From Wenjunlia vitaminophila DSM 41686 (GTDB lineage Bacteria > Actinomycetota > Actinomycetes > Streptomycetales > Streptomycetaceae), in contig NZ_KB904695.1 in the NCBI RefSeq assembly GCF_000380165.1, forward strand, positions 1 to 33,318: a stretch of DNA of 33,318 nucleotides, written 5' to 3'. Numbering within the stretch: the first letter of the stretch is position 1; every line of letters starts with the position of its first letter. Positions 19,580 to 33,318 of this stretch are shown here, piece after piece. A program made the translations under genes and the position numbers. The notes beneath the pieces are model-generated. The model did not search any database and was not told the origin of the DNA. It worked only from the letters and a program-made list of their open reading frames with translations.

Positions 19580-20488
19580 CCCCTGCTCTCAGCGTTAGAC
19601 AGCTCTGCTCATGAGGGAGTGCATAGAGATGCGGAGAACCGCATCGCCAGATCTTAAGGGAGTTTTGAGCGAGACTTTGACGGAATGACGAAACTCGTCC
19701 CTGCAAACCCTCGCGCAACACCCTTTGGGGGGGATTCCATGCTGGTCCAGGTATCTGTGGAAGGCTGCCGGAACGCGTGAAGGTCGCGGTTCTCGCGGGG
19801 GGCCTGGCGGCTGAACCGTTCGATGTTGACGGCGATCGCGATCAGGACGTGCTGGACGTGAACCCCCACTCCCCAACGCGCACCCGCGGTGCGGTGACAC
19901 CCTGGCCCCCGGCTCGTCGCCATGTTCGGTACCAAAGTCGCCACCCGGCGGCGGCCCAGTCGGTGGGCAGCGGGCCCCGTCCGGCACGAAGAACACCCTG
20001 CCGACCACTGCGCACGTCGACCCGGTCACGTCGTGCCAGGGCCACCGGGATCTCCGTGGCGTGACCAACGCGCGGCCACGCCATGGCCGTACCGGCACAG
20101 AGGCCAGCCACGAGCCGAGGGCACACGTCGCTCTTGTCGACAACCCATCCGCCGGGAGCTACTTCACCCAGGTCCGCCAGCCAGTCCCCCGGTCAACATC
20201 ACCAGTCATCACCAGTTGGACGGCACTCAGTTTCGGGGGCTGGCTTTGTGAGTGAGTTTTTCAGCCTCGGACTTTCATGCAATGGCCTGTTCAGCAGTTG
20301 ACCGGCGAAGCAGGAGTTCCTCTGCGCAGTGAGAATGAGGATCACCGAGGTCGTTGTTCCCGCTGAACCGGAGCACTTTCCGGGTGGCGCAGCCGATCGG
20401 TTGGCGCCGCGTGTACGCGTCCAGGTGGAACAGCCGCCAGGTCGTCGCGCGGGCCGGCTCGCGGTCCACGGGAAGGGCCGTGGCCCGG
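19580..20488. other. Gene-poor region upstream of the surface protein gene
   Basis: About 900 bp with no intact gene. It holds a frameshifted transposase remnant (19722-19890, minus). The part next to 19580-19700 is AT-richer and probably contains the surface-protein promoter. At 20195-20390 the base composition drops again and reads like eroded coding or insertion-sequence end material, but I recognise no family there. Confidence 0.5.
19722..19890 (-). pseudogene. Frameshifted C-terminal remnant of an insertion-sequence transposase
   Basis: One minus-strand frame reads VHVQHVLIAIAVNIERFSRQAP, and the next reads VPAAFHRYLDQHGIPP. Together they match the usual C-terminal end of a common Streptomyces DDE transposase group (a THVQHVLTAIAVNIERLS block followed by TAFQ.YLDQHGIP). 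The frame changes near 19765-19785. The rest of the transposase is absent or too decayed to read, so this is a dead fragment, probably of an IS1182-like element. The family name is from memory of the motif and is less sure than the identification as a transposase. Confidence 0.65.
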
Positions 20489-20869
20489 TCACCGGGAGGT
20501 GACCGGGACCTTGGTGTCGGCTGTCGGCTCGTCCGTGGCCTTCGCCGCCGGGTGCGCCTTGGTGAGCGTGAGGGTGCAGACGCCGTCCACACACTGACGC
20601 TCCAGACGGCCGCGGGAAACGGTCTGTGCCAGGCCGACCATCCAGCAGGTGGGGCAGCCGCGGAAGGCGACCAGGGCCAACGGGGCCGCCAGCAGGGTGG
20701 CCGGGCCAGCGACGGGCACCAGGCCGACCGAGCCGATGATCAACCCGAAGCCGATGGCGCCGCGCGCCAGGTGACGCGGGACGGACCTGCTGGCGAAGTT
20801 CGTCCCGGACACCCCGGACCGTGCGGTGGCCCAGGGCCCCCGCGGGGGCTTCACGGTTTTCACGGTCAC
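20489..20869 (-). CDS. DUF2892-like (YgaP-type) small membrane protein
   Basis: A 126-residue protein. Residues ~34-70 contain HLARGAIGFGLIIGSVGLVPVAGPATLLAAPLALVAF, two close membrane segments with the RG.IG pattern of the DUF2892/YgaP family. CPTC follows, then two more cysteines (RQCVDGVC). The four cysteines could bind metal or form a redox pair. The gene starts with GTG inside the stop of the ECF sigma gene (GTGA, 4-base overlap), so it is translationally coupled to it. It may be a target or a membrane modulator of the sigma factor; it does not look like a classical zinc-binding anti-sigma factor (no HxxxCxxC). Confidence 0.78.
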   Translation of the reverse strand: MTVKTVKPPRGPWATARSGVSGTNFASRSVPRHLARGAIGFGLIIGSVGLVPVAGPATLLAAPLALVAFRGCPTCWMVGLAQTVSRGRLERQCVDGVCTLTLTKAHPAAKATDEPTADTKVPVTSR

Positions 20870-21447
20870 GCGTCTCCTCCGATGGGTTGGTCGACGGATC
20901 GATCGGTTGCTTTCAGCGAGTGACGCAGTGCCGCACGCGCCCTGTGCAGACGCGACTTCATGGCGGCGTTGCTCAGACCGAGCGAATGGGCGACGGTCTT
21001 GCCGGGCAGGCCCTGTACGTCCCGCATGATCAGGACCTGCCGCTGGTCACGGGGGAGGGCACAGACCGCAGCCGCGATCCGTTCCACCTCCAGCCTGCGC
21101 AACACCGCGTCCTCGGCGGACGGTTCTGCGGACGCCTCCGGCTCGGCCGACGCGTCGTCGCTCCGCGGGACGAGCAGCCGGACCTGCCGGAGGCACTCGT
21201 TGCGCACGATCCGGAACATCCACGAGGCGAGCGCGCCAGTGGCCCGCAAGGTGCCGATCTTCCGATAGAGAATGATCAATGCCTCCTGCGCCGCGTCCTC
21301 CGCGTCCTGCGGTGAGGCGCACAGCGACAGGGCGAACCTGCGCACATGAGGCTGCGATGTCGCGACGACGGTGATGAGCGAAGTGACGTCGCCGTCCTGA
21401 GCTGCCTTGATCAGCCGCTCGTCCGGCCAGGGGAAGCGTTGGTTCAT
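20866..21447 (-). CDS. ECF-type RNA polymerase sigma factor
   Basis: A 193-residue sigma-70 family protein. Region 2 is seen in DAEDAAQEALIILYRKIGTL and ALASWMFRIVRNECLRQ. Region 4 is CALPRDQRQVLIMRDVQGLPGKTVAHSLGLSNAAMKSRLHRARAAL. It carries no C-terminal extra domain. It sits between a 29-aa membrane peptide gene upstream (42-base gap) and a coupled DUF2892-like membrane protein gene downstream, and these three probably form one operon. A palindrome at 21679-21691, within the likely promoter region, may be a regulator site. Confidence 0.9.
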   Translation of the reverse strand: MNQRFPWPDERLIKAAQDGDVTSLITVVATSQPHVRRFALSLCASPQDAEDAAQEALIILYRKIGTLRATGALASWMFRIVRNECLRQVRLLVPRSDDASAEPEASAEPSAEDAVLRRLEVERIAAAVCALPRDQRQVLIMRDVQGLPGKTVAHSLGLSNAAMKSRLHRARAALRHSLKATDRSVDQPIGGDA

Positions 21448-21489
21448 GTGCTACTCACACTCGGAAGGCGCTCTGTGCTCGGGCGCTGG

Positions 21490-21579
21490 TCAGCTTCGGC
21501 TCTTGTAGCGCCGCACCAGGTGCCAGCTACACGCGCCCACGAGCAGGGCTCCTATCACTACGAGGCCAGTAACCATCAT
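21490..21579 (-). CDS. 29-residue single-pass membrane peptide
   Basis: The peptide starts MMVTGLVVIGALLVGAC, has one membrane segment and ends in the basic tail HLVRRYKSRS. GGGAGG lies 8 bases before the first ATG (21579), a near-ideal ribosome binding site that none of the longer in-frame starts has. It lies 42 bases upstream of the ECF sigma gene on the same strand. No family is recognised. By position it could be a small membrane regulator of the sigma factor; that is inference. The second ATG (21576) is an equally possible start. Confidence 0.65.
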   Translation of the reverse strand: MMVTGLVVIGALLVGACSWHLVRRYKSRS

Positions 21580-21678
21580 GGATGTTTCCTCCCGGTTCCG
21601 CCGGCCCGTTCGACCGGTGCACAGACAAGAGACGGGGAGATCGGGAAAGGATTCAGCTTCCGGCGCTGTCGAACGTCT

Positions 21679-21691
21679 CGTTCCTGGAACG
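21679..21691. promoter_or_regulatory. CGTTCCTGGAACG palindrome upstream of the ECF operon
   Basis: Six-base arms around a central base lie 100 bases before the small membrane peptide. The GGAAC half-site also resembles the -35 element used by ECF sigma factors, so it may be an autoregulated promoter or an operator. Confidence 0.35.
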
Positions 21692-21844
21692 TTGCTGACC
21701 CGCCCCCCTGGTTCCCACGCGGTGCGCGACATCGGCGCCACCCTCTTCCCCGCCACGGCGCGGGCTCCGGAGCAGCACAGCACCATGCTGCGCGGCCGGC
21801 CCGTTCGGGCCTGGCTGACGGAGTTCGTCCCGACGGCGCGGCCG

Positions 21845-22537
21845 TCACGACGGGCGGTCGCCGGCGCCGTCCGGGGAGGCGTGCACCAGACCCGTGCGGT
21901 ACGCGATGACGACGAGTTGCGCCCGGTCGCGGGCCTCCAGCTTCGTCATCGCGCGCTGCACGTGGGCGCGGACGGTGAAGGGGCTGAGGAACATCCGCTC
22001 GGCGATCTCCTGGTTGGACAGTCCCGTGGCGACCAGTGCCACCATCTCGCGCTCGCGCGGGGTGAGGACGGCCAGCCGTTCGGGGTGGTGCCGCGGGGCG
22101 TCGTCCGGGGTGGCGAGGAAGCGGGCGACGAGGGAGCGGGTCGCGGCGGGCGACAGCAGGGTGTCGCCCGCCGCGATCGTACGGACCGCGTCCACCAGTT
22201 CACCGGCCCCGATGCCCTTGCCGATGAAGCCGCCGGCCCCCGCGCGCAGCGCCTGCGCGACGTACTCGTCCGTCTCGTACGTGGTGAGGATCAGAATCCG
22301 GCTGCCGCGCAGCTCGGGGTCCGCGGCGATCTCCGTCGTGGCGGTGAGACCGTCCACCTCGGGCATGCGGATGTCCATGACCACCACGTCCGGGCGCAGT
22401 TCGCGGGTGAGGTTCACCGCCTCCCTGCCGTCCGCGGCCTCACCGACCACGGTGATGTCGTCGGCGGTCTCGAGAAGCATCCGGAAGGCCCCGCGCAGCA
22501 GTGCCTGGTCGTCGGCGAGCAGCACCCGCACCGTCAT
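21845..22537 (-). CDS. NarL/LuxR-family response regulator
   Basis: A 230-residue protein. The receiver domain has the acidic pair Asp9-Asp10, phospho-acceptor Asp55 (VVVMDIRMPEVDG), Thr85 and Lys107. The C-terminal LuxR helix-turn-helix is LTPREREMVALVATGLSNQEIAERMFLSPFTVRAHVQRAM. The start codon overlaps the kinase gene's stop by four bases (ATGA), so the pair is coupled. With the MMPL transporter gene upstream it forms a three-gene operon. The transporter is a plausible target of the two-component system, though it could equally supply the signal. Confidence 0.95.
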   Translation of the reverse strand: MTVRVLLADDQALLRGAFRMLLETADDITVVGEAADGREAVNLTRELRPDVVVMDIRMPEVDGLTATTEIAADPELRGSRILILTTYETDEYVAQALRAGAGGFIGKGIGAGELVDAVRTIAAGDTLLSPAATRSLVARFLATPDDAPRHHPERLAVLTPREREMVALVATGLSNQEIAERMFLSPFTVRAHVQRAMTKLEARDRAQLVVIAYRTGLVHASPDGAGDRPS

Positions 22538-23892
22538 CGCGCGTCCCCCGCCTCTCCGTCACCCACCCGTCCACCGTCCCTCACTCCACCGTCCGTCGTT
22601 CCGTCGCCCGACGCTCCGTCGCCCGTACGCCCCCCGCTGGTTGCCGCGGCGTCGCTTGCGCGCGGCGTGTCCTTGGCGGCCGGGAGGGGCAGCTCGGTGG
22701 AGACGAGGAAGCCGCCCTCGGGACGTCTGCCCGCGGAGAGGTGTCCCCCGACCGCGGTGGCACGTTCACGCATCCCGATGAGACCGTAGCCGGGCGCACG
22801 CTCCCGCGCGGTGGCCGCACCCGGCGCCGTGGACGCGGCAGGTGCCGTACGGGCGCCGCCACCGTCGTCGGCGACGGTGATGGTCACGCGATCACGGTTC
22901 CAGACGAGGCGCACCCGGGCGCTGCCGGTGCCGGCGTGCTTGGTCACGTTGGTCAGGGCCTCCTGGACGATGCGGTACGCGGTGAGGTCCACCCCCGGCG
23001 GCAGCGGCCTGGCCGTGCCCTCCTGGTCCAGGGACACCTCCAGGCCCGCGCGGCCGAAGGATTCGAGGAGCGTGGCCAGCCGGGACAGCCCGGGGGCCGG
23101 TTCCGCGGGCTCGGCCGCGTCCCCGGACTGGCGGAGCAGCCCGACCGTGGCGCGCAGGTCGTCGAGGGCGTCGCTGGTCGTCTGGACCAGCTCCGCCAGG
23201 CTCCTGCGGACCTGTTCCGGGCGGGAGTCGAAGAGGTGGGCGGCGACCGTGGCCTGCGCGTTGGCCAGGGTGATCTGATGGGCAACGAGGTCGTGCAGCT
23301 CCCGGGCGATACGCAGCCGTTCCTCGGCCACCCTGCGGCGCGCCTCGCTCTCCCGGCTCTTCTCCGCCCGCCGCGCCCGCTCCTCCATGGCGGCCAGGTA
23401 CGCCCGCCGGTTGTGTGCCGAGTGTCCGAGCACGCCAGCCACCAGCGGGAACGCCGCCACCGAGCCCATCCGGCTGGCGTCCTGCCACGACAGGTCCTCG
23501 AACCAGGGGGTGGCGGCGAGCAGCAGCGCCGCGGAGGCGAGCGACACCATGGTCACGGCGCGCAGTTCGGTGCGGGCACGGAGCGCGTACGCGTAGGCGG
23601 CGATCACAGCGGGCGCCATGATCGGCGGGCTCAGCAGGAGGCCCAGGGGCGGCACCAGCAGCCCGGCCACGGTCGTGGCCGCCAGAGCAGCCAGGGGCGC
23701 CCGGTGCCGAACGGGCAGCACGGCACAGGACGCCACTGCGATCAGGTAGGCGGCGGCGGGCGGCGGTGCCAGCGTGTCGTCGACCCGCACCACGCCGCCG
23801 AGCAGGCAGAGCGTGAACGCCGTCGCCGTGATCGCCGCCTCCCGCCACCAGCTACGACGTGGTCGCCGGCCGCAGCCGCCCGGGTTCGTCAC
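22534..23892 (-). CDS. NarL-type sensor histidine kinase (HisKA_3)
   Basis: A 452-residue protein with about five or six hydrophobic segments in residues 20-160. The HisKA_3 dimerisation domain has phospho-acceptor His200 in RELHDLVAHQITLANAQ. The HATPase has N-box EALTNVTKHAG (Asn315), G1 DDGGG and GYGLIGMRERA. The catalytic domain ends near residue 405. The last ~47 residues are a Gly/Asp/Thr-rich low-complexity tail that normal relatives lack, encoded by degenerate CCGTC-type repeats. It follows the MMPL gene by 7 bases and overlaps the response regulator gene by 4. Confidence 0.93.
   Translation of the reverse strand: MTNPGGCGRRPRRSWWREAAITATAFTLCLLGGVVRVDDTLAPPPAAAYLIAVASCAVLPVRHRAPLAALAATTVAGLLVPPLGLLLSPPIMAPAVIAAYAYALRARTELRAVTMVSLASAALLLAATPWFEDLSWQDASRMGSVAAFPLVAGVLGHSAHNRRAYLAAMEERARRAEKSRESEARRRVAEERLRIARELHDLVAHQITLANAQATVAAHLFDSRPEQVRRSLAELVQTTSDALDDLRATVGLLRQSGDAAEPAEPAPGLSRLATLLESFGRAGLEVSLDQEGTARPLPPGVDLTAYRIVQEALTNVTKHAGTGSARVRLVWNRDRVTITVADDGGGARTAPAASTAPGAATARERAPGYGLIGMRERATAVGGHLSAGRRPEGGFLVSTELPLPAAKDTPRASDAAATSGGRTGDGASGDGTTDGGVRDGGRVGDGEAGDAR
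22556..22632. repeat. Degenerate CCGTC/CGTCG simple-sequence tract
   Basis: Irregular short repeats such as CCGTC, TCCGTCG and CGCCC run through this stretch. They encode the low-complexity Gly/Asp tail of the kinase and are likely to vary in length between strains. Confidence 0.55.
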
Positions 23893-23899
23893 GGCCGGG

Positions 23900-26143
23900 T
23901 CAGTCCCGGCCGACCGGGAGCCGTGGCACCGCCGTGCCCGGCCCGCCCGCAGGGACGGGGACCCCCCTGCTCAGCGCCTCGCCCTCGATGTCCACGTTCG
24001 GCAGCACACGGTGCAGGATACGAGGCAGCCACCAGGCCCGGTGGCCGAGCAGCGCCAGGACCGCGGGCACGATGGCCATCCGGACCACGAAGGCGTCGAA
24101 GGCGACGGCCGCGGCCAGGCCGAGGCCCATCGTCTGGATGGTCGGGCTGCTCATCCCGATGAACCCGGCGAACACGCTGATCATGATGATCGCCGCGGCG
24201 GCCACCACACGGCCGCTGTGCCGGAACCCGTTGACGATCGCCTCGACGGGCGACGCGCCGTGGACGTATGCCTCCCGCATCCGGGTGACCAGGAAGACCT
24301 CGTAGTCCATGGCGAGGCCGAACACGATGCCGATGATGAGGATCGGCATCAGCGACATCACCGGTCCGGTCTGCTCGATGCCGAGCAGGTCCGCCCCCCA
24401 TCCCCACTGGAAGACGGCGACGAGGACGCCGAAGGCGGCACCGACCGACAGCAGGAAGCCGAGCGCGGCCTTGACCGGGACCAGGATCGACCGGAAGACC
24501 ACCGTCAGCAGGAGCACCGCCAGGCCGATGACCACGGTCAGGTACGGGAGGAGGGCGTCGGACATGGCTTCGGAGATGTCGATGTTCATCGCGGTGGTGC
24601 CGGTCACCAGGACGGCGGCGCCCGTGTCGGCCTCGAGGCCGGTGGCCGCGTCCCGGATCGCGTGCACCAGGTCCCTGGTCTCGCCGCTGTTGGGCGCGGC
24701 CTTCGGGACGGCGGTGAGGACGGCCGTGTCCCCGGCCTCGTCGCGCACCGGGTCGCCTACCGACGCGACGCCGTCGACGTCCCGTACGGTCTCGACCACC
24801 AGGTCGGTGGTGGCCTCGGGGTCCGCGGACTTCGACGTGTCGACGACCACGGTCAACGGGCCGTTGAAGCCCGGGCCGAAGCCTTCCGCCAGCAGGTCGT
24901 AGGCGCGGCGCTGGGTGGTCTCCACCGACTTGGACTCGTCCCCGGGCAACCCGAGTTCGAGGCTCAGCGCCGGCACGGCGACGGCGCCGAGGCCGAGTCC
25001 GGCGACCAGCAGCACGGCCACCGGCCGCCGCAGGACGAACCGCGCCCAGCGGGTACCGAAACCGGGCCCGCCGGCCGCGGCGGGCACCGGGTGCGGGCCC
25101 TCACCGGCGCGCCGGGCGGCCTTGCGGGCGGCACGGGACAGCACCTTGGGGCCGGCGAAGCCGAACATCGCGGGGACCAGGGTGAGCGCGACGAGCACGG
25201 CGAGGGCCACGGCGCCGGCACCGCCCATGCCCATCCTGGTGAGTTCGGGGATGCCGACGACCCCCAGCCCGAGCAGGGCGACGAAGACGGTCGCGCCGGC
25301 GAAGACCACGGCGGACCCAGCCGTGCCCACCGCCCGGCCGGCGGCCTCCTCCGGCTCGCTGCCCCGGGCGAGTTCGTCGCGGAACCGGGAGGTGATGAAG
25401 AGCGCGTAGTCGATGCCGACCGCCAGCCCCAGCATCAGCGCCAGGATGGCGACGGTTGACGTCAGGCCCAGCGGCACGGCCAGCGCTGAGACCAGGCCGA
25501 AGGCGGTGGCCACGCCCGCGAAGGCGGTCAGCAGGGACAGTCCGGCCGCGACCAGCGAACCGAGGGCGAGGACCAGCACCACCGCGGCCACCGCCACACC
25601 GACGAGCTCCGTCGTCCCGCCCGGCTCCTCTTCCGAGTCCAGGGCGGAGCCGCCGATCTCCACGGTCAGCCCCGCGTCCCGGCCCCGGTCCGCGGCGTCC
25701 TCCAGGGCGCTCTTCGTCGGCCCGGTCAGGTCGACGGTGTCCGCGGTGTAGGTGATCGTGGAGTAGGCGACGGTGCCGTCCTCGCTGACGTCGCCGGCCT
25801 CGTACGGGTCGGTGGCCGACGCGACCTGGTCGCCGCCGTCCAGCGAGCCCAGCGCGTCCGCGACGGCCGCCCTGTGCTGCTGCGCCGTCACCCGCTGACC
25901 GTCCGGGGCGCGGAACACCAGGCGGGCCTCGGCCCCCTGCGCGTTCTTCTCGGGGAAGCGCTCGTCCAGCAGGTCGAACGCCTTCTGCGACTCGGTGCCG
26001 GGCATGGAGAGGTCCTCTTCCTCCCCGGCCGGCGCCACGGCGGCGGCGACGCCGACCAGCACCAGGGCGACCAGCCACGTGCCACCGACGAGCCGGCGCC
26101 GCCGGAAGGCCCACCGCCCGATCTGGTAGAGAATTGTCGCCAC
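23900..26143 (-). CDS. MMPL/RND-family transporter
   Basis: A 747-residue protein built of two similar halves. Each has one membrane segment, a large extracytoplasmic loop and about five further segments. The conserved motifs are GLAVGIDYALFITSRFRDE in the first half and GIVFGLAMDYEVFLVTRMREA in the second, with the proton-relay-type Asp residues. Relatives export lipids, siderophores or drugs. I chose GTG 26143 because GGAG lies about 10 bases upstream and MATILYQIGRWAFRRR is the usual family start; the frame extends to 26263 without support. It is the first gene of an operon with the sensor kinase (7-base gap) and response regulator. Confidence 0.93.
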   Translation of the reverse strand: MATILYQIGRWAFRRRRLVGGTWLVALVLVGVAAAVAPAGEEEDLSMPGTESQKAFDLLDERFPEKNAQGAEARLVFRAPDGQRVTAQQHRAAVADALGSLDGGDQVASATDPYEAGDVSEDGTVAYSTITYTADTVDLTGPTKSALEDAADRGRDAGLTVEIGGSALDSEEEPGGTTELVGVAVAAVVLVLALGSLVAAGLSLLTAFAGVATAFGLVSALAVPLGLTSTVAILALMLGLAVGIDYALFITSRFRDELARGSEPEEAAGRAVGTAGSAVVFAGATVFVALLGLGVVGIPELTRMGMGGAGAVALAVLVALTLVPAMFGFAGPKVLSRAARKAARRAGEGPHPVPAAAGGPGFGTRWARFVLRRPVAVLLVAGLGLGAVAVPALSLELGLPGDESKSVETTQRRAYDLLAEGFGPGFNGPLTVVVDTSKSADPEATTDLVVETVRDVDGVASVGDPVRDEAGDTAVLTAVPKAAPNSGETRDLVHAIRDAATGLEADTGAAVLVTGTTAMNIDISEAMSDALLPYLTVVIGLAVLLLTVVFRSILVPVKAALGFLLSVGAAFGVLVAVFQWGWGADLLGIEQTGPVMSLMPILIIGIVFGLAMDYEVFLVTRMREAYVHGASPVEAIVNGFRHSGRVVAAAAIIMISVFAGFIGMSSPTIQTMGLGLAAAVAFDAFVVRMAIVPAVLALLGHRAWWLPRILHRVLPNVDIEGEALSRGVPVPAGGPGTAVPRLPVGRD

Positions 26144-26334
26144 TTGTCGATCACTCCAGACACCGCTAGGAACGGGGATCGCGCGAGATCTCACGCGCTT
26201 TCCACACTCCCGGCCGGCGCCTCGCGGGGCATCGTCTGCCGTGGCCGTCTTCTCCTGGTGCATCCGGACCGGTCACCGAGGCGTCCTGGTGCCCACGCAC
26301 CACGTCCCGCCCCGGGCCGGGGCCACCCCGCCGG

Positions 26335-26853
26335 TTACTCCCCGCCTTCCTCGAAGTCCTCGACGAAGAAGCTGTCGTGCCGGATGCGGAACCGCCTCAG
26401 CTCCTCGCCGCCGCGCCGCGACATCTCCGCGACCCGCTCGAAGTACTCCTCGCGCGGCGCGCCCGGGGAGAAGAGAATGAGCATGCGGGCGGGCTCGTCG
26501 GTGGCGTTCCGGAAGGCGTGCAACCCGCCGACGGGCACGTACAGGAAGTCCCCGCTGCGCCCCGTCACCCACCTGTCGCCGTCGTACAGCTCCAACTCGC
26601 CGGAGACCACGTAGAAGGACTCCGACACCGCCTTGTGGAAGTGCGTCTTGGCCCCCGGTGAGCGAGGGCCGAGCTGCATCTCGTACAGCCCGAACTCGCC
26701 GCCGGTCGACTCCTCGGTGGCGAGGTAGCGGGTGTAGCCGCCGGGCGAGGTGATGTCCGGCGGGGTGCCGGCGGGCCGGAACGTCGCGTTCACCTCACCT
26801 CTCTCCCCGTGGTAGCGGGGCTCGGGATAGGCGAGGTCTTCCGGGTACGACAT
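26335..26853 (-). CDS. Cupin-domain protein
   Basis: A 172-residue single cupin. The metal ligands are His71, His73 and Glu78 (HFHKAVSESFYVVSG) and His112 (PVGGLHAF), all present. I chose ATG 26853 because AAGGAG lies 8 bases upstream and MSYPEDLAYPEPRY looks like a real N-terminus; the longer frame to 26913 has no ribosome binding site. The family includes small-molecule dioxygenases, isomerases and sensors, so the substrate is unknown. It is upstream of the MMPL operon on the same strand, with about 190 bp between, and divergent from the GntR gene. Confidence 0.88.
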   Translation of the reverse strand: MSYPEDLAYPEPRYHGERGEVNATFRPAGTPPDITSPGGYTRYLATEESTGGEFGLYEMQLGPRSPGAKTHFHKAVSESFYVVSGELELYDGDRWVTGRSGDFLYVPVGGLHAFRNATDEPARMLILFSPGAPREEYFERVAEMSRRGGEELRRFRIRHDSFFVEDFEEGGE

Positions 26854-27077
26854 GGGTGCGCTCCTTCCGGCGGGTCCTCCGGCATCGTGCCCCAGGCACC
26901 GGGTGAGCGGCATCGGACAACCGGATGATCCTCGGGGGCACCGGGCCGGGGCCCGTGGACCTCGTACCGCACGTGTGGTTCGCTACCGTCGCCGGTGTGG
27001 CCCCTCACCCTCGGGGTCAACCCGGCGGCGGCCACGCGTGCGGTGGTGTCGTCGGCCAGAGCTTCCCGCGGGGGCAC
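26790..27077 (-). CDS. Candidate small ORF with a consensus ribosome binding site, possibly a decayed gene
   Basis: GTG 27077 is preceded at 8 bases by AAAGGAGG, the best ribosome binding site in this part of the window. The frame gives PPREALADDTTARVAAAGLTPRVRGHTGDGSEPHVRYEVHGP, which looks protein-like for about 55 residues. It then runs through the cupin gene's ribosome binding site and first codons in another frame, giving implausible sequence. It may be the head of a gene whose 3' part was lost, or a short leader peptide. No family is recognised. It is divergent from the GntR gene. Confidence 0.35.
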   Translation of the reverse strand: MPPREALADDTTARVAAAGLTPRVRGHTGDGSEPHVRYEVHGPRPGAPEDHPVVRCRSPGAWGTMPEDPPEGAHPCRTRKTSPIPSPATTGREVR

Positions 27078-27120
27078 GAGGTGTTCCTCCTTTGCCGCGG
27101 CGTCATTCACAGCGAAGTGG

Positions 27121-27156
27121 GTCAACTCATTGGCCCTATTGGGCTAGATTCTCCGT
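27121..27156 (+). promoter_or_regulatory. Probable promoter and operator of the GntR gene
   Basis: TAGATT at 27145-27150 is a good -10 box only 6 bases before the ATG, implying a leaderless transcript. GTCAAC at 27121-27126 is a possible -35, 18 bases upstream. Between the boxes lies the inverted repeat GCCC-TATT-GGGC (27133-27144), well placed as an autorepression operator. Confidence 0.55.
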
Positions 27157-27912
27157 ATGCGTGAGCAGCCGCCGTACCTCCGCATCGCTGACCTGCTCCG
27201 GGAGCGGATCGCGAACCACCAATGGTCACCTGGAGACCGGCTACCGTCACGGGCCCAGCTCGGCCGGGAGCACGGGGTGGGTGAGAACGTCGTCCGCCGG
27301 GCGCAGGAACTACTGATCTCCAAGGGAGTCCTGGAGGGGCGCGCGGGGTCGGGCACGTACGTCGCGGAGCCGCGCGAGCGGCTGCGGGTGATCCGCTCGC
27401 GCCGGCAGGACCAGCGCGGTGGCCCGTCCTTCCGCGCCGAGATGTCCGCCCTCGGCAAGCGTGGCACCTGGGACAGCGGAACGGAGCCCCGGGTCCCCGC
27501 CCCCGCGGACATCGCCGGCCGGCTCGGCATCGCCGAGGGAGATCTCTGCGTCCGCACCAGGTACGAGTTCCTGGCTGACGGACGCCCCGTCCAGCTCTCC
27601 ACGAGCTGGGAGCCGCACGCGCTGACGGCCGGCACCCCGGTGATGCTTCCCGAGAGTGGCCCCCGTGCCGGAACGGGTGTGGTGGCCCGCATGACGGAGA
27701 TCGGCATCAAGGTCGATCACGCGGTGGAGCAACCTGAACCGGGGCGGGCCACGGCGGAGGAAGCCGTCCTCCTTGGCATCCAGCGTGGCGTGTTGGTCAC
27801 GCGGATTCAGCGCACGTATGTCGCTGACGACGGTCGGGCCGTTGAGACGGCGGACATCATCGTGCCGGCCCGACTCGGCACGATCATCTACGAGGTGCCG
27901 GTTGGCCCGTGA
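27157..27912 (+). CDS. GntR family regulator, HutC/UTRA type
   Basis: A 251-residue protein. The N-terminal winged helix-turn-helix is PPYLRIADLLRERIANHQWSPGDRLPSRAQLGREHGVGENVVRRAQELLISKGVLEGRAGSGTYV. The C-terminal ~150 residues are a UTRA ligand-binding domain (GDLCVRTRYEFLADGRPVQLSTSWEP and VLVTRIQRTYVADDGRAVETADIIVPA). Streptomyces relatives include the transfer regulators KorSA and TraR of integrative plasmids. The ATG has no ribosome binding site but a -10 box directly upstream, so it is probably leaderless. No obvious metabolic operon adjoins it, so the ligand is unknown. Confidence 0.9.
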   Translation: MREQPPYLRIADLLRERIANHQWSPGDRLPSRAQLGREHGVGENVVRRAQELLISKGVLEGRAGSGTYVAEPRERLRVIRSRRQDQRGGPSFRAEMSALGKRGTWDSGTEPRVPAPADIAGRLGIAEGDLCVRTRYEFLADGRPVQLSTSWEPHALTAGTPVMLPESGPRAGTGVVARMTEIGIKVDHAVEQPEPGRATAEEAVLLGIQRGVLVTRIQRTYVADDGRAVETADIIVPARLGTIIYEVPVGP

Positions 27913-28004
27913 GGGCGCCGACCACGTCCTGGCGCCTCCCGCCCCCATCGGCTCGTCCGCGATGTCCCGTTGCGTCGCCGCACACGGATGGGTTGGATGC
28001 GGCC

Positions 28005-28487
28005 ATGAGCGGGGGAGAACACCAGGAATCAGGCCTCTCGAAGAGCGTCTGGAGCGATGCGGACTTCGAGGAGATGGGGTGGCACGACGCCACCATCCAT
28101 GGTGTGTACCTCCAGCAGACTGACGCCGTCCTACCCCGTCTGTTGCTCGACCTTGACTACATCGTGCGCTGGGTCCACCCGCTCCCGCCGGAGGAGTACT
28201 TCAGCTTCTGGCTCTCTCCGGCAACGCTCGCCTTCGAGGACGTCTGGGATCTCGAGGGAGACCTTGCGGGAGCGGATCTACAGATCGACACCCTGCACCG
28301 GCTGGCCCCCGACGATGGTCGAGAGGACCTGCCGTTGTGGCACATCGAGGGCCACGCCTTCGACCTGAAGTTCCGCGCGTCCAGCTATTGGCAGTACTTC
28401 CGCCGGCCCCCCAGAATCAACTCCCGCCTCATGCTGTCGCCGACAGCCCGCGGAGGCTGCTCCTTCGACGAGGTCGCCTTCGACTGA
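28005..28487 (+). CDS. Conserved hypothetical protein, resembles immunity-type proteins
   Basis: About 160 residues from ATG 28005. It has a distinctive pattern: MGWHDATIHGVYLQ, then LLLDLDYIVRWV, FWLSPATLAFEDVWDL and a C-terminal FDLKFRASSYWQYFRRPP. A WHD start with an LDIDYI strand occurs in hypothetical proteins often found near polymorphic toxins, but no toxin gene lies next to it here. The protein has no signal peptide or membrane segment. The frame extends back to GTG 27909, which overlaps the GntR stop, but those 32 residues look non-coding; 28005 itself has only a weak GGAT upstream. The function is unknown. Confidence 0.65.
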   Translation: MSGGEHQESGLSKSVWSDADFEEMGWHDATIHGVYLQQTDAVLPRLLLDLDYIVRWVHPLPPEEYFSFWLSPATLAFEDVWDLEGDLAGADLQIDTLHRLAPDDGREDLPLWHIEGHAFDLKFRASSYWQYFRRPPRINSRLMLSPTARGGCSFDEVAFD

Positions 28488-29575: not shown

Positions 29576-29789
29576 GTTTTGTTCCGCCCCTCCGGCCCTG
29601 AGTGCCCCGCCCGTCACGGTCGCACGAGGCCATCGCGGACATGTATCAGGTATTCCAAGATTTAACGATGGCCGGAAACCCCCTTCTTTTCACATTGCGC
29701 TGACAGGGATCATGGCAGCGAATGACCTCGGATACTTTCAATGCCCACCTTGGATTTTCCTATTTCCGGCGACGCGGGGGATCACCGTG
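29576..29789. promoter_or_regulatory. Leader region of the NRPS gene
   Basis: About 210 bp, AT-richer from 29640 on, which probably carries the NRPS promoter. A 20-codon frame at 29641-29703 includes a TTA codon, but its ribosome binding site is weak, so I do not call it a gene. Confidence 0.4.
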
Positions 29790-32700
29790 ATGAATAAGGG
29801 CACCGAACTCGCAGGGAAAAACGCGGCGGCAGACAGTTTCGAACGGCATTCCAGGAACACGCCGGAGCGGAGCGCGATTCTGTATCAGGGCACCGTGACC
29901 GATTACGGGAAGCTGAATCGGCGGGCCGAGACGATCGCCGCGCGTCTGACAGCCGCGGGCGCCGGTCCCTCGACGCTGGTGGCGGTGGTCCTGCCGCGCG
30001 ATCCCGATCTCGTCGCCACCTTGTGTGCGGTGCTCAAACTGGGTGCCGCGTGTCTCCCCGCCGACCCTGGTGCCCCGGCCGGACGGCTGCGCGAGATCCT
30101 CGCCGACGCGGACCCCGACATCCTCGTCACCACTCGTGCCGCCGCTCCGGAATTCACCGTCGACGGGCCCGTCTGTTTCCTGGACGACAAGCCGCCGACA
30201 CCCCCCGTTGCCCCGCCGGAGCATATCGCGCGGGGCATGCCGGGAATCGCCTATCTGCTTTATGCGGCACCTTCTGAAAAAAGGCCGGGGAATTCGATCG
30301 TCTCCTACGCCGATTTGGCGCACTATATCGACGATCCAGGCATCGGTATTCCGGACGGGGCGGAGATCCTCCATCTGGTCGCGCCGCTCCTGTCAGGCAA
30401 TCGTCTCGTGTTGGACGCGGATGAGGTCCCACACCGGCCGGCCACCCGAGTGGCACCACGCGATGTGGTGGAGGAGGTCATTGCGCAGGTCTGGTGCGCC
30501 GTGCTCGGCGTGGACCGGGTCGGCGTACGGGACCGTTTCTTCGACCTGGGCGGCAAGTCGCTGCTAGCGCTCCAGGTGGTGGCGCGCCTGCGGAAGCTGC
30601 TCGGTGTCGAACTGCCGGTGCGGGTCCTGTTCGACGCGCCGACGGTCGAGGAGCTGGCCGCCTGGGTGCGGGCCGGACACGCTGGCGGCCAGGACGGCCG
30701 CGAGGAGGCGGCACTCCGGCCGGTGGAGCGCGGCAGGCCGCTGCCGCTGTCATTCGCGCAGCAACGTCTCTGGTTCCTTGACCAGCTGGTGCCCGACAGT
30801 GCCTTCTACGTGATGTGCGACGCCTTCCGCATACGGGGACGCCTCGACCTGGACGCGCTGCGGCGGGCGCTGCGGATGCTGGTCGCTCGGCATGAGACGC
30901 TGCGGACGGCGTTCGTCGAGCGGGACGGTGTGCCGTACCAGGTCGTTGACGCCGTCGACGGGCCGGGCGCACGGCGTGCGGCCGCCCTCACGCGGGTCGA
31001 CCTGACACCACTGGAACCCGCCGAGCGGGAGGAGTCGGCCCGCAGGCTGGTGGCGGCGGAGTCGCAGACCCCCTTCCGGTTGGAAGACGGCGCGCTGATG
31101 CGTGCGGTGGTGACCCGGCTGGCCGACGACGACCACGTACTGGTGGTCACCATGCACCACATCGTCTCCGACGCCTGGTCCGTGGGTGTGCTGGTGGACG
31201 AACTCGGCCGGCTGTACCGAGAGTGCGTCACCGGCGACTCCGCCGGACTCCCTCCACTGGACGTCCAGTACGCCGACTTCGCCCTCTGGCAGCGCGACTG
31301 GATGACCGGCCCGGTCCAGGAGGAGCAACTCGCCTACTGGAGGCGGGCTTTGGACGGCGCGCCCTCGGTGCTGCGGCTGCCCACCGACCACCCGCGACCC
31401 GCCGTCCAGTCCGAGCGGGGCGAGACGGTCGAGTTCACGCTCTCCGACGCGGTGGTCACCGCGCTGGAGGAGTTCGGCCGGGAGCAGGGCGTCACCCTCT
31501 TCATGACACTGCTCGGCGCCTTCCAGGTACTGCTGGCGCGCCATGCCGGGCATGAGGACATCGTGGTCGGCGTGCCGTCGGCCGGGCGTACCCGCACCGA
31601 GACGGAACCCCTGGTCGGCTTCTTCGTCAACACCCTCCCCCTGCGCGTGACCTGCGCCCCCGGCTTGTCCTTCCGGGACCTCCTGGAGCAGGTGCGCGAG
31701 GCCGCGCTCGGCGCCTTCGCCCACCAGGACCTGCCCTTCGAGACCCTGGTCGAGGCACTCGCACCCGAGCGCGACCTCAGCCACAACCCCCTCGTCCAGG
31801 TCACCTTCCAGCTCCTGAGCACGCCGGCGGCGCGACCGAGCCTGCCCGGGGCGGAGGTGGAGCGGTACCCGGTCGGGGAGGTCGTCTCGCAGTTCGACCT
31901 GTCCTTGGACATCAAACGGTCCGACGATGGTTCGTACCGGGGAATCCTGAACTACTGCCCCGATCTGTTCGACCGGCCCCGCATGAGCGTGCTGGCCGCC
32001 CAGTATCTGACGCTGCTCGGCGCCGCTGCCGCGGACCCAGGTTGCAGGATCGGCGATCTGCCGCTGTCCGACGAGGCTGAACGGCGTCTGGTCCTTGACG
32101 AGTTCGGGCAGCGGGACGCGGCGCTCACCGGACCGGGCGGCGTCCCGGAGCGGTTCGCGGAGGTGCTGCGGGCGGCGCCGGACGCGCGGGCGGTGACCTG
32201 CGGCGAGGACACACTCACGTTCGCCGAGCTGGACGCTCAAGTGGCCTCGTTGGCAGGGACGTTGCTCGCCTCCGGGGTCACCCCCGAGACACCGGTCGCC
32301 GTGTGCCTGCCGCGCTCCACCGACAGCGTCGTCGCCCTGCTGGCTGTGATGCGGGCGGGCGGCGTCTACGTACCCCTGGACCCGGAGTGGCCCGCCGACC
32401 GTACGGCCTACGTCCTGGAGGACACCGCGGCACCCGTCGTCATCACCCGCGACCTGCCCGCAGGCCCCGGCCGCCTCCACCTCGACCCGCGGCAGCCCCC
32501 AGCCGACGGCTCGGTGACCGCGCCGCACATCCGCCCCGATCAGGCCGCTTACATCATCTACACGTCCGGCTCGACGGGCGCGCCGAAAGGTGTAGCCGTC
32601 CAGCACCGCTCGCTGAACCACCTCACCAGCACCCTGCAGGCGACCTTCCTCGGCCACGACCCGTATCTCGCCGGCGCCGACAGCGTGCCGCCCGGGGACA

Positions 32701-33318
32701 GGAAGCTGCGCGCGACGCTCACCGCGCCCTTCACGTTCGACGCGTCGATGGAGCAGCTGAGCTGGATGCTGGCCGGTCACGAGCTGTTCATCGTGCCGGA
32801 AGACGTGCGCCGCGACCCATCGGCCCTGGTCCGGTTCGTCGAGGAGCACCGGATCGACGTCATCGACACGACGTCTTCGCAGCTCGAACTCCTCACGGCC
32901 GCCGGACTGCTGGAGGGGGCGTGGGCGCCGTCCATGGTCATGGTGGGCGGGGAGGCGGTCTCGCCGTCGCTGTGGCAGGCGCTGCGCGGCCAGCGGCGTA
33001 CGCGCTGTTTCAACCTGTACGGCCCGACGGAAGCGACCGTAGACGCCACCTGCCACGACCTGTCCGACCCCGTCGACGTACCCGTCATCGGCACCCCGCT
33101 GCCCAACGTCCGCCTCCGCCTCCTCGACGAACAACTACGGCCGGTCCCCATCGGCGTCGCCGGCGAGATCTACCTCGGCGGCCCCGGACTAGCCCGCGGC
33201 TACGTCAACCGCCCCGCCCTCACCGCACAACGCTTCATCGCCGACCCCCACGGCGACACCCCCGGCAGCCGCCTCTACCGCACCGGCGACCGAGCCCGCT
33301 GGCGCCCCGACGGAACCC
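29790..33318 (+). CDS. Nonribosomal peptide synthetase, 5' part: truncated A, T, C, A domains (runs off the edge)
   Basis: An open frame of 1176 codons continuing past the window. Residues ~15-180 look like the start of an adenylation domain (LKLGAACLPADPGAPAGRL matches core A2). Core A3 is degenerate (LLYAAPSEKRPG in place of TSGSTGxPKG), and A4-A10 are missing. A carrier domain follows (223-295; LGGKS, phosphopantetheine Ser257), then a condensation domain (~317-745; SFAQQRLWFLDQL and active site HHIVSDA with His457, Asp461). A complete-looking second A domain starts at ~785 (A3 at 921, FDAS Asp984, RLYRTGDRARW at the window end). GGGGG precedes GTG 29787 and ATG 29790; an in-frame ATG at 29712 is possible but adds non-NRPS residues. 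It should make a peptide product whose starter unit is loaded by another protein. Confidence 0.93.
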   Translation, partial: MNKGTELAGKNAAADSFERHSRNTPERSAILYQGTVTDYGKLNRRAETIAARLTAAGAGPSTLVAVVLPRDPDLVATLCAVLKLGAACLPADPGAPAGRLREILADADPDILVTTRAAAPEFTVDGPVCFLDDKPPTPPVAPPEHIARGMPGIAYLLYAAPSEKRPGNSIVSYADLAHYIDDPGIGIPDGAEILHLVAPLLSGNRLVLDADEVPHRPATRVAPRDVVEEVIAQVWCAVLGVDRVGVRDRFFDLGGKSLLALQVVARLRKLLGVELPVRVLFDAPTVEELAAWVRAGHAGGQDGREEAALRPVERGRPLPLSFAQQRLWFLDQLVPDSAFYVMCDAFRIRGRLDLDALRRALRMLVARHETLRTAFVERDGVPYQVVDAVDGPGARRAAALTRVDLTPLEPAEREESARRLVAAESQTPFRLEDGALMRAVVTRLADDDHVLVVTMHHIVSDAWSVGVLVDELGRLYRECVTGDSAGLPPLDVQYADFALWQRDWMTGPVQEEQLAYWRRALDGAPSVLRLPTDHPRPAVQSERGETVEFTLSDAVVTALEEFGREQGVTLFMTLLGAFQVLLARHAGHEDIVVGVPSAGRTRTETEPLVGFFVNTLPLRVTCAPGLSFRDLLEQVREAALGAFAHQDLPFETLVEALAPERDLSHNPLVQVTFQLLSTPAARPSLPGAEVERYPVGEVVSQFDLSLDIKRSDDGSYRGILNYCPDLFDRPRMSVLAAQYLTLLGAAAADPGCRIGDLPLSDEAERRLVLDEFGQRDAALTGPGGVPERFAEVLRAAPDARAVTCGEDTLTFAELDAQVASLAGTLLASGVTPETPVAVCLPRSTDSVVALLAVMRAGGVYVPLDPEWPADRTAYVLEDTAAPVVITRDLPAGPGRLHLDPRQPPADGSVTAPHIRPDQAAYIIYTSGSTGAPKGVAVQHRSLNHLTSTLQATFLGHDPYLAGADSVPPGDRKLRATLTAPFTFDASMEQLSWMLAGHELFIVPEDVRRDPSALVRFVEEHRIDVIDTTSSQLELLTAAGLLEGAWAPSMVMVGGEAVSPSLWQALRGQRRTRCFNLYGPTEATVDATCHDLSDPVDVPVIGTPLPNVRLRLLDEQLRPVPIGVAGEIYLGGPGLARGYVNRPALTAQRFIADPHGDTPGSRLYRTGDRARWRPDGT

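What the first reader, a model, noticed from the sequence alone, without database searches (positions are those of the whole stretch)
29790..30675. NRPS starts with a truncated, apparently inactive A domain fused to a carrier domain
The first ~180 residues follow an A domain through core A2, lose the ATP-binding A3 signature, and reach the carrier domain after only ~60 more residues. A4-A10, including the specificity pocket and the A10 lysine, are absent. The carrier Ser257 and the following C domain look intact. Either the starter unit is supplied in trans by a separate A domain or acyl ligase, or an internal deletion has broken the loading module. The frame is kept across the junction, which argues for a tolerated or selected form.
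Basis: partly seen in the sequence, partly recalled or inferred. Interest (0 to 1): 0.66.

Follow-up and report, generated by a model that had tools for sequence, protein, structure and literature searches.

The report
Peptide synthetase with half-lost loading domain
A Streptomyces-type peptide-making enzyme begins with a shrunken activating domain that can probably no longer pick its own first building block; related bacteria keep the same shrunken form, so the first block is probably supplied by a separate small enzyme of the same gene cluster.

Summary
Confirmed and extended. The NRPS gene (start GTG 29787 or ATG 29790) opens with an adenylation (A) relic: A1-A2 are present, the A3 P-loop signature is lost, A5-A10 are absent. 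An intact-looking carrier (Ser257) and condensation domain follow. Three other genomes carry the same junction at 68-89% identity, with no indel in 213 relic residues and relic dN/dS 0.35-0.44. A strain-specific deletion or assembly error is therefore unlikely. The gene runs off the contig. The cluster resumes on another contig and is whole in a one-contig relative: (dA)T-C-A-T-C-A(MT)-T, arginine-hydroxylase-like oxygenase, type II thioesterase, MFS, NcmC-like Cys alpha/beta-hydrolase, stand-alone A-T didomain, TauD-like oxygenase. Best reading: the relic cannot adenylate, and carrier T1 is loaded in trans, most likely by the cluster's A-T didomain (Asn-like code, read by eye). Loading is not shown. 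Inactive truncated A domains served by other A domains are known (kutzneride, SidD, Fusarium NRPS5). SidD and glidonin keep the C-terminal part; here the N-terminal part is kept. New variant of a known kind.

The parts
29584..29786 (+). conserved upstream region of the NRPS gene, with GGGGGATCA before the start codon
   Evidence: blastn matches begin at 29584 (S. swartbergensis), 29611 (G436) and 29674 (G454); alignment of the four upstream regions
29787..33318 (+). NRPS gene, 5' part; runs off the contig end and resumes on G000:C35
   Evidence: open frame; window end 33044-33318 matches C35:1-275 at 274/275
29790..30428 (+). A-domain relic (dA), residues 1-213
   Evidence: partial Pfam AMP-binding match; A-T profile positions 5-174 then jump to 486; no indel among four genomes
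29823..30209 (+). A1-A2 part of the relic (residues 12-140), predicted to fold in part like the first subdomain of A domains
   Evidence: AF2 block means 59-84 for residues 41-130, about 50 before that; Foldseek 1amu 124 columns at 1.6 A, 4d4g 122 columns at 1.7 A
30261..30299 (+). degenerate A3 (P-loop) place, YAAPSEKRPGNSI
   Evidence: sequence; canonical A3 pattern absent from the four relics
30384..30413 (+). PLLSGNRLVL block, conserved in four genomes, resembling the region after A4 of normal A domains
   Evidence: alignments; by eye
30477..30668 (+). carrier (T1) domain, motif FFDLGGKSL, Ser257 at 30558-30560
   Evidence: PF00550; Ser position; same motif in four genomes
30741..32087 (+). 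condensation domain C1, motif HHIVSDA
   Evidence: PF00668; motif
32157..33318 (+). second A domain, normal in the part held, cut by the contig end (AMP-binding match to 33203)
   Evidence: PF00501; canonical A3, A5 and A7 patterns present

Best explanation
The N-terminal A domain of this NRPS is a catalytically dead relic kept as part of the loading module. Carrier T1 is intact and is loaded in trans. The most likely loader is the stand-alone A-T didomain of the same cluster (G000:C35:5924-7663, Asn-like pocket code). Its amino acid may be hydroxylated by the neighbouring TauD-like oxygenase while tethered, and may be handed over by the adjoining NcmC-like Cys alpha/beta-hydrolase in the manner of SyrC. 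C1 then joins it to the residue of the next module. Shown: loss of the A motifs, intact T1 and C1 motifs, conservation of the junction in four genomes, gene content. Inferred: inactivity, loading in trans, identity of the loader and its amino acid, hydroxylation and shuttle steps, and a scaffold role for the relic.
For: Motif loss and the roughly 310-position jump. Same junction in S. swartbergensis L055 (89% over 222 residues), G454 and G436 (72% and 68%), no indels, relic dN/dS 0.35-0.44 in six pairs with bootstrap upper bounds 0.59-0.66 for the three pairs tested. In G436 (one contig) T1 is the only carrier of the NRPS without a complete A domain, and the A-T didomain, NcmC-like protein and TauD-like oxygenase are present at 84-86% identity to those of G000. 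The A-T has no condensation domain by Pfam, so its amino acid must go elsewhere. Precedents, from passages: the non-functional A* of kutzneride is said to be critical for KtzN-mediated Glu transfer (PMC10587159); SyrC moves the SyrB1-bound residue to SyrE (PMC3039948); Fusarium NRPS5 has a truncated A domain in its first module and NRPS9 is suggested to deliver the first residue (PMC6563249).
Against: No biochemistry. The relic is the least conserved of the NRPS parts compared (68% against 84-87% for T, C and the second A domain, window versus G436). Its middle stretch is near neutral (dN/dS 0.50-1.31), so part of it may be only a spacer; and its overall dN/dS (0.35-0.44) overlaps the range of the second A domain (0.15-0.43), so the numbers show constraint but nothing special to the relic. 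The NcmC-like protein has Asn where NcmC has Asp and no His at the NcmC His place, though a His stands three residues before that stretch (EHGFDV; triad recalled), so shuttle or cyclase activity is uncertain. The genome has 39 AMP-binding matches, many of which could supply T1, and the A domains of the same chain could load it, as in SidD. A review assigns KtzN another role (PMC4147253, passage). The cluster beyond the first modules was not seen in G454, whose contig ends there.
Confidence: 0.6

Rival explanations
1. T1 is loaded by an A domain of the same NRPS chain or a partner chain (module 2 or 3), so the first residue repeats one of theirs, as SidD A1 loads T1 and T2.
For: SidD precedent (PMC10192304, passage); the modules are paralogues (C506 versus window 76.6% DNA over 2835 columns).
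Against: It leaves the conserved stand-alone A-T didomain, which has no condensation domain, without an acceptor.
Confidence: 0.17
2. T1 takes a non-amino-acid starter from an acyl ligase or a PKS encoded elsewhere.
For: G436 has a large PKS-like gene with an N-terminal ligase-like part directly downstream (read by eye); G000 holds many AMP-binding proteins (39 matches).
Against: That gene has no close counterpart in what was read of the other clusters: only short matches of 33-38% in the 14.3 kb of S. swartbergensis C23, and 35-44% matches to a PKS on C68 of G000.
Confidence: 0.1
3. A recent deletion or assembly error has broken the loading module.
For: Contigs in three of the four assemblies end inside the second A domain, in G000 and S. 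swartbergensis at a repeated A segment, so assembly trouble is nearby.
Against: The junction lies about 2.9 kb before the window's break and is the same in four genomes, one of them a single contig; no indels; dN/dS below 1.
Confidence: 0.04
4. The relic is a passive leftover; synthesis starts at module 2 and T1 is never loaded.
For: The middle of the relic is near neutral; C1 has HHIVSDA instead of HHxxxDG.
Against: T1 keeps its serine and is 87-97% identical in the six pairs with dN/dS 0.17-0.41; C1 keeps both His.
Confidence: 0.09

Closest known systems
Kutzneride synthetase: non-functional A* with stand-alone A domain KtzN
   Same: inactive A domain left in the chain and a separate A domain supplying the amino acid (PMC10587159 passage); Fe/2OG hydroxylases in the cluster (KtzO/KtzP, recalled)
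   Different: the kutzneride A* lies inside the chain (recalled), not in the loading module; the candidate loader here is an A-T didomain with its own carrier; KtzH was not aligned here
Syringomycin SyrB1 / SyrC / SyrE (and SyrP)
   Same: a residue activated on a separate SyrB1, modified there, and moved to the main NRPS (PMC3039948 passage); SyrB1 as an A-T didomain is recalled
   Different: the residue there is the last one; no A relic is mentioned in the passage read; likeness of the NcmC-like protein to SyrC was not tested
SidD/Nps6 dA (fungal siderophore NRPS) and glidonin GdnB A*
   Same: truncated, catalytically dead A domain kept in the chain (PMC10192304 passage; PMC10587159 passage)
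   Different: SidD dA lacks about 290 N-terminal residues and GdnB A* keeps only the C-terminal subdomain; here the N-terminal A1-A2 part is kept and the C-terminal subdomain is lost
Fusarium NRPS5 (fusaoctaxin A) first module
   Same: a truncated A domain in the first module, first residue suggested to come from another NRPS (PMC6563249 passages)
   Different: fungal; which part is missing is not stated in the passages read
Nocamycin Dieckmann cyclase NcmC (for the 272-aa neighbour)
   Same: phmmer 3.8e-23 over residues 8-265, Cys in G-[FY]-C-A-G
   Different: Asn for Asp and no His at the aligned places; no beta-keto substrate is expected from a cluster without PKS genes (inference)

Membership tests
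NRPS A domain (catalytic) | A1-A2 N-terminal subdomain present | tested here: met
   Pfam AMP-binding 1-103; Foldseek matches of 122-124 columns at 1.6-1.9 A for 1amu, 4d4g, 4d4i and 4d56; the top-ranked rows span 163-253 columns at 8.7-14.5 A because the rest of the model is poor
NRPS A domain (catalytic) | A3 P-loop signature, A5, A7, A8 and A10 lysine | tested here: not met
   patterns absent from the relic in four genomes, apart from a chance A10-pattern hit in the A1-A2 block of two of them; profile jump 174 to 486
Carrier (PCP) domain | phosphopantetheine serine in GGxS and PP-binding match | tested here: met
   PF00550 61-67 bits, FFDLGGKSL
Inactive A* complemented in trans (kutzneride type) | truncated or inactive A domain kept in a chain | tested here: met
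   truncation shown; inactivity inferred
Inactive A* complemented in trans (kutzneride type) | separate A domain encoded in the same cluster | tested here: met
   A-T didomain C35:5924-7663, 97% and 85% identical in S. swartbergensis and G436
Inactive A* complemented in trans (kutzneride type) | transfer of the amino acid to the carrier beside A* | not testable with these tools
   needs purified proteins
SyrB1/SyrC/SyrE-type shuttle system | A-T didomain plus non-heme iron oxygenase genes | tested here: met
   Pfam and PDB matches
SyrB1/SyrC/SyrE-type shuttle system | Cys alpha/beta-hydrolase aminoacyltransferase homologous to SyrC | tested here: inconclusive
   a Cys alpha/beta-hydrolase is present but its match is NcmC; SyrC was not compared, and the NcmC-type Asp and His are replaced

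The most novel reading that the evidence does not exclude
The N-terminal A1-A2 half of a dead A domain has been kept, in the loading module, as a docking platform for an external A-T didomain and its tailoring and transfer enzymes: a mirror image of the C-terminal A* relics of SidD and glidonin.
Probability: 0.3. Interest if true: 0.6.

Novelty: new variant of a known kind. Interest (0 to 1): 0.42.

Why it matters
If the relic is needed for loading in trans, it is a small natural adaptor (about 210 residues) by which an assembly line accepts a first residue made and modified on another protein. That would help NRPS engineering and the prediction of products from clusters where the module rule fails. 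It also warns that an automatic reading as an A-T loading module would predict a substrate for a domain that has no substrate pocket.

Tried and rejected
Leads that failed. (1) Four family hits with gap-poor alignments over the junction (G098, G116, G233, G143) looked like further relics; reading them showed ordinary A domains with a carrier further on. Other long hits (for example G093, G078, G054, G114 in frames of 611-641 residues) were not read. (2) The arginine-hydroxylase-like neighbour as a cluster marker gave 19 of 394 family genomes at E <= 1e-80, G000 itself among them, the best other 50% identical: no close cluster relative in that draw; their surroundings were not read. In genus g1 it matched 2 of 2 genomes, the other at 41%. 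(3) The relic query in genus g14 gave 0 of 70. (4) The first tree (34 rows, two of 36 dropped as short) had 14 rows in a junk clade, all of them reverse-strand hits that I had not turned; it was redone with all 36 rows. There the four relics form one clade (100/100) on a long stem, separate from the cluster's own A domains; the deeper order is unsupported and the bootstrap had not settled, so the parent A domain was not identified. (5) My code-reading script picked a wrong A4 anchor for the A-T didomain; I read that place by eye from the sequence. (6) AF2 of dA-T was poor as a whole (mean pLDDT 46.6). (7) The Dieckmann-cyclase reading of the 272-aa neighbour was not adopted, for want of a beta-keto substrate (inference). 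(8) Paper searches: 'KtzN'+'KtzH'+'truncated' and 'truncated A domain'+'NRPS'+'loading module' returned nothing; some searches returned 1, 1, 1, 4, 2 and 6 papers, of which passages of five were read. I make no claim that the form is unpublished.

Full report
What is there. The window is G000:C61:1-33318, and loci of that contig stop at 33318, so it is taken as one whole contig. An open frame with conserved start GTG 29787 (ATG at 29790) runs off its end. Residues 1-213 (counted from ATG 29790) resemble the beginning of an NRPS adenylation domain. Pfam AMP-binding matches positions 1-103 of 384 at 76.9 bits. Solved relatives by sequence are NRPS A domains such as LgrA, Txo2 and GrsA. At the A3 place the sequence reads YAAPSEKRPGNSI instead of a P-loop signature. 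A profile from six full A-T stretches matches at 5-174 and next at 486-579 of 607. The carrier (Ser257), condensation domain and second A domain follow.

The gene beyond the window. The window end (33044-33318) matches the first 275 bases of G000:C35 at 274 of 275, the odd base being an N. C35 continues with the end of an A domain, an inserted methyltransferase and a carrier, then these genes: arginine-hydroxylase-like oxygenase (NCBIfam GntD 427.6 bits, cut-off 345; VioC 366.8, below its cut-off 418.6; PDB matches include L-arginine beta-hydroxylase), type II thioesterase, MFS, a 272-aa protein, a stand-alone A-T didomain, a TauD-like oxygenase and MbtH. The 272-aa protein has no Pfam or NCBIfam match at E <= 0.01 but matches the Dieckmann cyclase NcmC at 3.8e-23. 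The rest of the window shows no further biosynthetic gene of this kind among the 20 proteins scanned.

Relatives. A pattern scan of GTDB r220 genome contigs found three loci, of which one (L055, Streptomyces swartbergensis) carries the relic over residues 2-226. A search of 392 genomes of the large genus g9 found two more at E <= 1e-31 over residues 2-225: G454 (72%) and G436 (68%). A family draw of 394 genomes (query with the carrier) gave no other relic that I recognised; its listing is cut, and four borderline hits were read and rejected. Genus g14 gave 0 of 70. No relative with a full A domain in this place was seen in these searches. G436 is a one-contig genome and shows the whole gene: 2820 residues, (dA)-T-C-A-T-C-A(MT)-T. 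In S. swartbergensis the middle module lies on a 3225-base contig C506 whose ends overlap the neighbours. Its counterpart was not found in the G000 assembly (best match is the window's own module at 75%), so in this strain the module is absent or unassembled. Downstream genes are 95-97% identical in S. swartbergensis and 84-91% in G436; MbtH was found in the former, not in the 29.9 kb of G436 read. The G454 contig ends inside the NRPS gene, so its cluster was not seen further.

Selection. Over 213 residues the four relics align without an indel. Pairwise NG86 dN/dS of the relic is 0.35-0.44 across six pairs; bootstrap intervals for the three pairs tested end at 0.59-0.66 (200 resamplings each). 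The A1-A2 block has 0.28-0.42 and the last 43 residues 0.13-0.35, while residues 121-170, around the lost A3, have 0.50-1.31. T has 0.17-0.41, C 0.21-0.28 and the second A domain 0.15-0.43, so the relic is constrained, somewhat less than C and about as much as the weaker pairs of T and the second A domain. The relic has higher dS than T and C in all six pairs, which may reflect gene conversion among the paralogous modules (inference). The 113-203 bases upstream of the start align with the relatives; no match was found before that in the stretches compared, so the cluster seems to sit in different surroundings.

Structure. AF2 from six sequences is poor overall (mean pLDDT 46.6), with block means of 59-84 for residues 41-130. 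Foldseek's ranked rows are all A domains or A-containing NRPS chains in the 50 shown; the top rows have high rmsd (about 9-14 A) because of the poor part, while the first subdomain alone superposes well: 124 columns at 1.6 A for 1amu, 122 at 1.7 A for 4d4g. The rest cannot be judged.

Mechanism. Without A3, A5, A7, A8 and A10 the relic should not adenylate (established knowledge of the family). In G436 T1 is the only carrier of the chain without a complete A domain, and the A-T didomain is an A without a condensation partner. The simplest pairing is that A-T supplies T1. The pocket residues of A-T, read by eye with recalled GrsA numbering, are D-M-T-K-V-G-E-V-G-K, close to recalled Asn codes. 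Those of the window's second A domain are D-A-E-D-M-G-L-V-D-K (segments), suggesting a cationic residue, in keeping with the arginine-hydroxylase-like enzyme (recalled; weak). Whether the TauD-like enzyme works on A-T and whether the 272-aa protein is a shuttle are open. Its Cys is conserved in three genomes, but NcmC's Asp is Asn here and no His stands at the aligned place, though one stands close by in EHGFDV (triad recalled).

Comparison with print. From passages only: SidD and Nps6 carry a truncated A domain lacking about 290 N-terminal residues, and SidD A1 loads both T1 and T2 (PMC10192304). Glidonin GdnB A* keeps only the C-terminal subdomain, and the authors call such A* rare besides that of kutzneride, which is critical for KtzN-mediated Glu transfer (PMC10587159). 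Fusarium NRPS5 has a truncated A domain in its first module, and NRPS9 is suggested to deliver the first residue (PMC6563249). SyrC moves the chlorinated threonine from SyrB1 to SyrE (PMC3039948). A review gives KtzN a different role, in the MecPGly moiety (PMC4147253). The present case works like these, but keeps the opposite part to SidD and glidonin, and sits in the loading module.

Verdict. A real, conserved truncation under constraint; a new variant of a known kind; moderate interest.

Noticed in passing
window 33044-33318 and G000:C35:1-275: Contig ends overlap at 274/275; S. swartbergensis contigs break at the corresponding A-domain repeat (L055, C506, C23), so the module count in this strain is unsettled.
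   Followed up: partly
L054:5109-5927 (G000:C35): 272-aa NcmC-like alpha/beta-hydrolase with GYCAG nucleophile but Asn for Asp and no aligned His, beside an NRPS without PKS genes; conserved in three genomes.
   Followed up: partly
window 30537-30563: T1 has LGGKS in the four genomes, whereas the other two carriers of G436 have LGGHS and LGGDS.
   Followed up: no
window 31155-31175 (C1, residues 456-462): C1 motif is HHIVSDA in the four genomes instead of HHxxxDG; C2 of G436 has HHIVSDG.
   Followed up: no
L099 (G454), second A domain of the NRPS: About 71 residues including A3 are missing in frame from this A domain, in a contig that ends nearby; either a second truncation or an assembly fault.
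   Followed up: no
L097/L098 (G436), joined coordinates 20330-28483: A large PKS-like gene with an N-terminal ligase-like part lies directly downstream of the TauD-like gene in G436; no close counterpart in the stretches of the other two genomes compared.
   Followed up: partly
L054:11960-13628: Divergent pair that reads like IS200/IS605 TnpB and TnpA beyond the cluster (by eye).
   Followed up: no
window 16820-19579 (-): 919-aa protein with SdrD_B and SpaA-like domains, near an ECF-type sigma factor gene (20866-21447).
   Followed up: no
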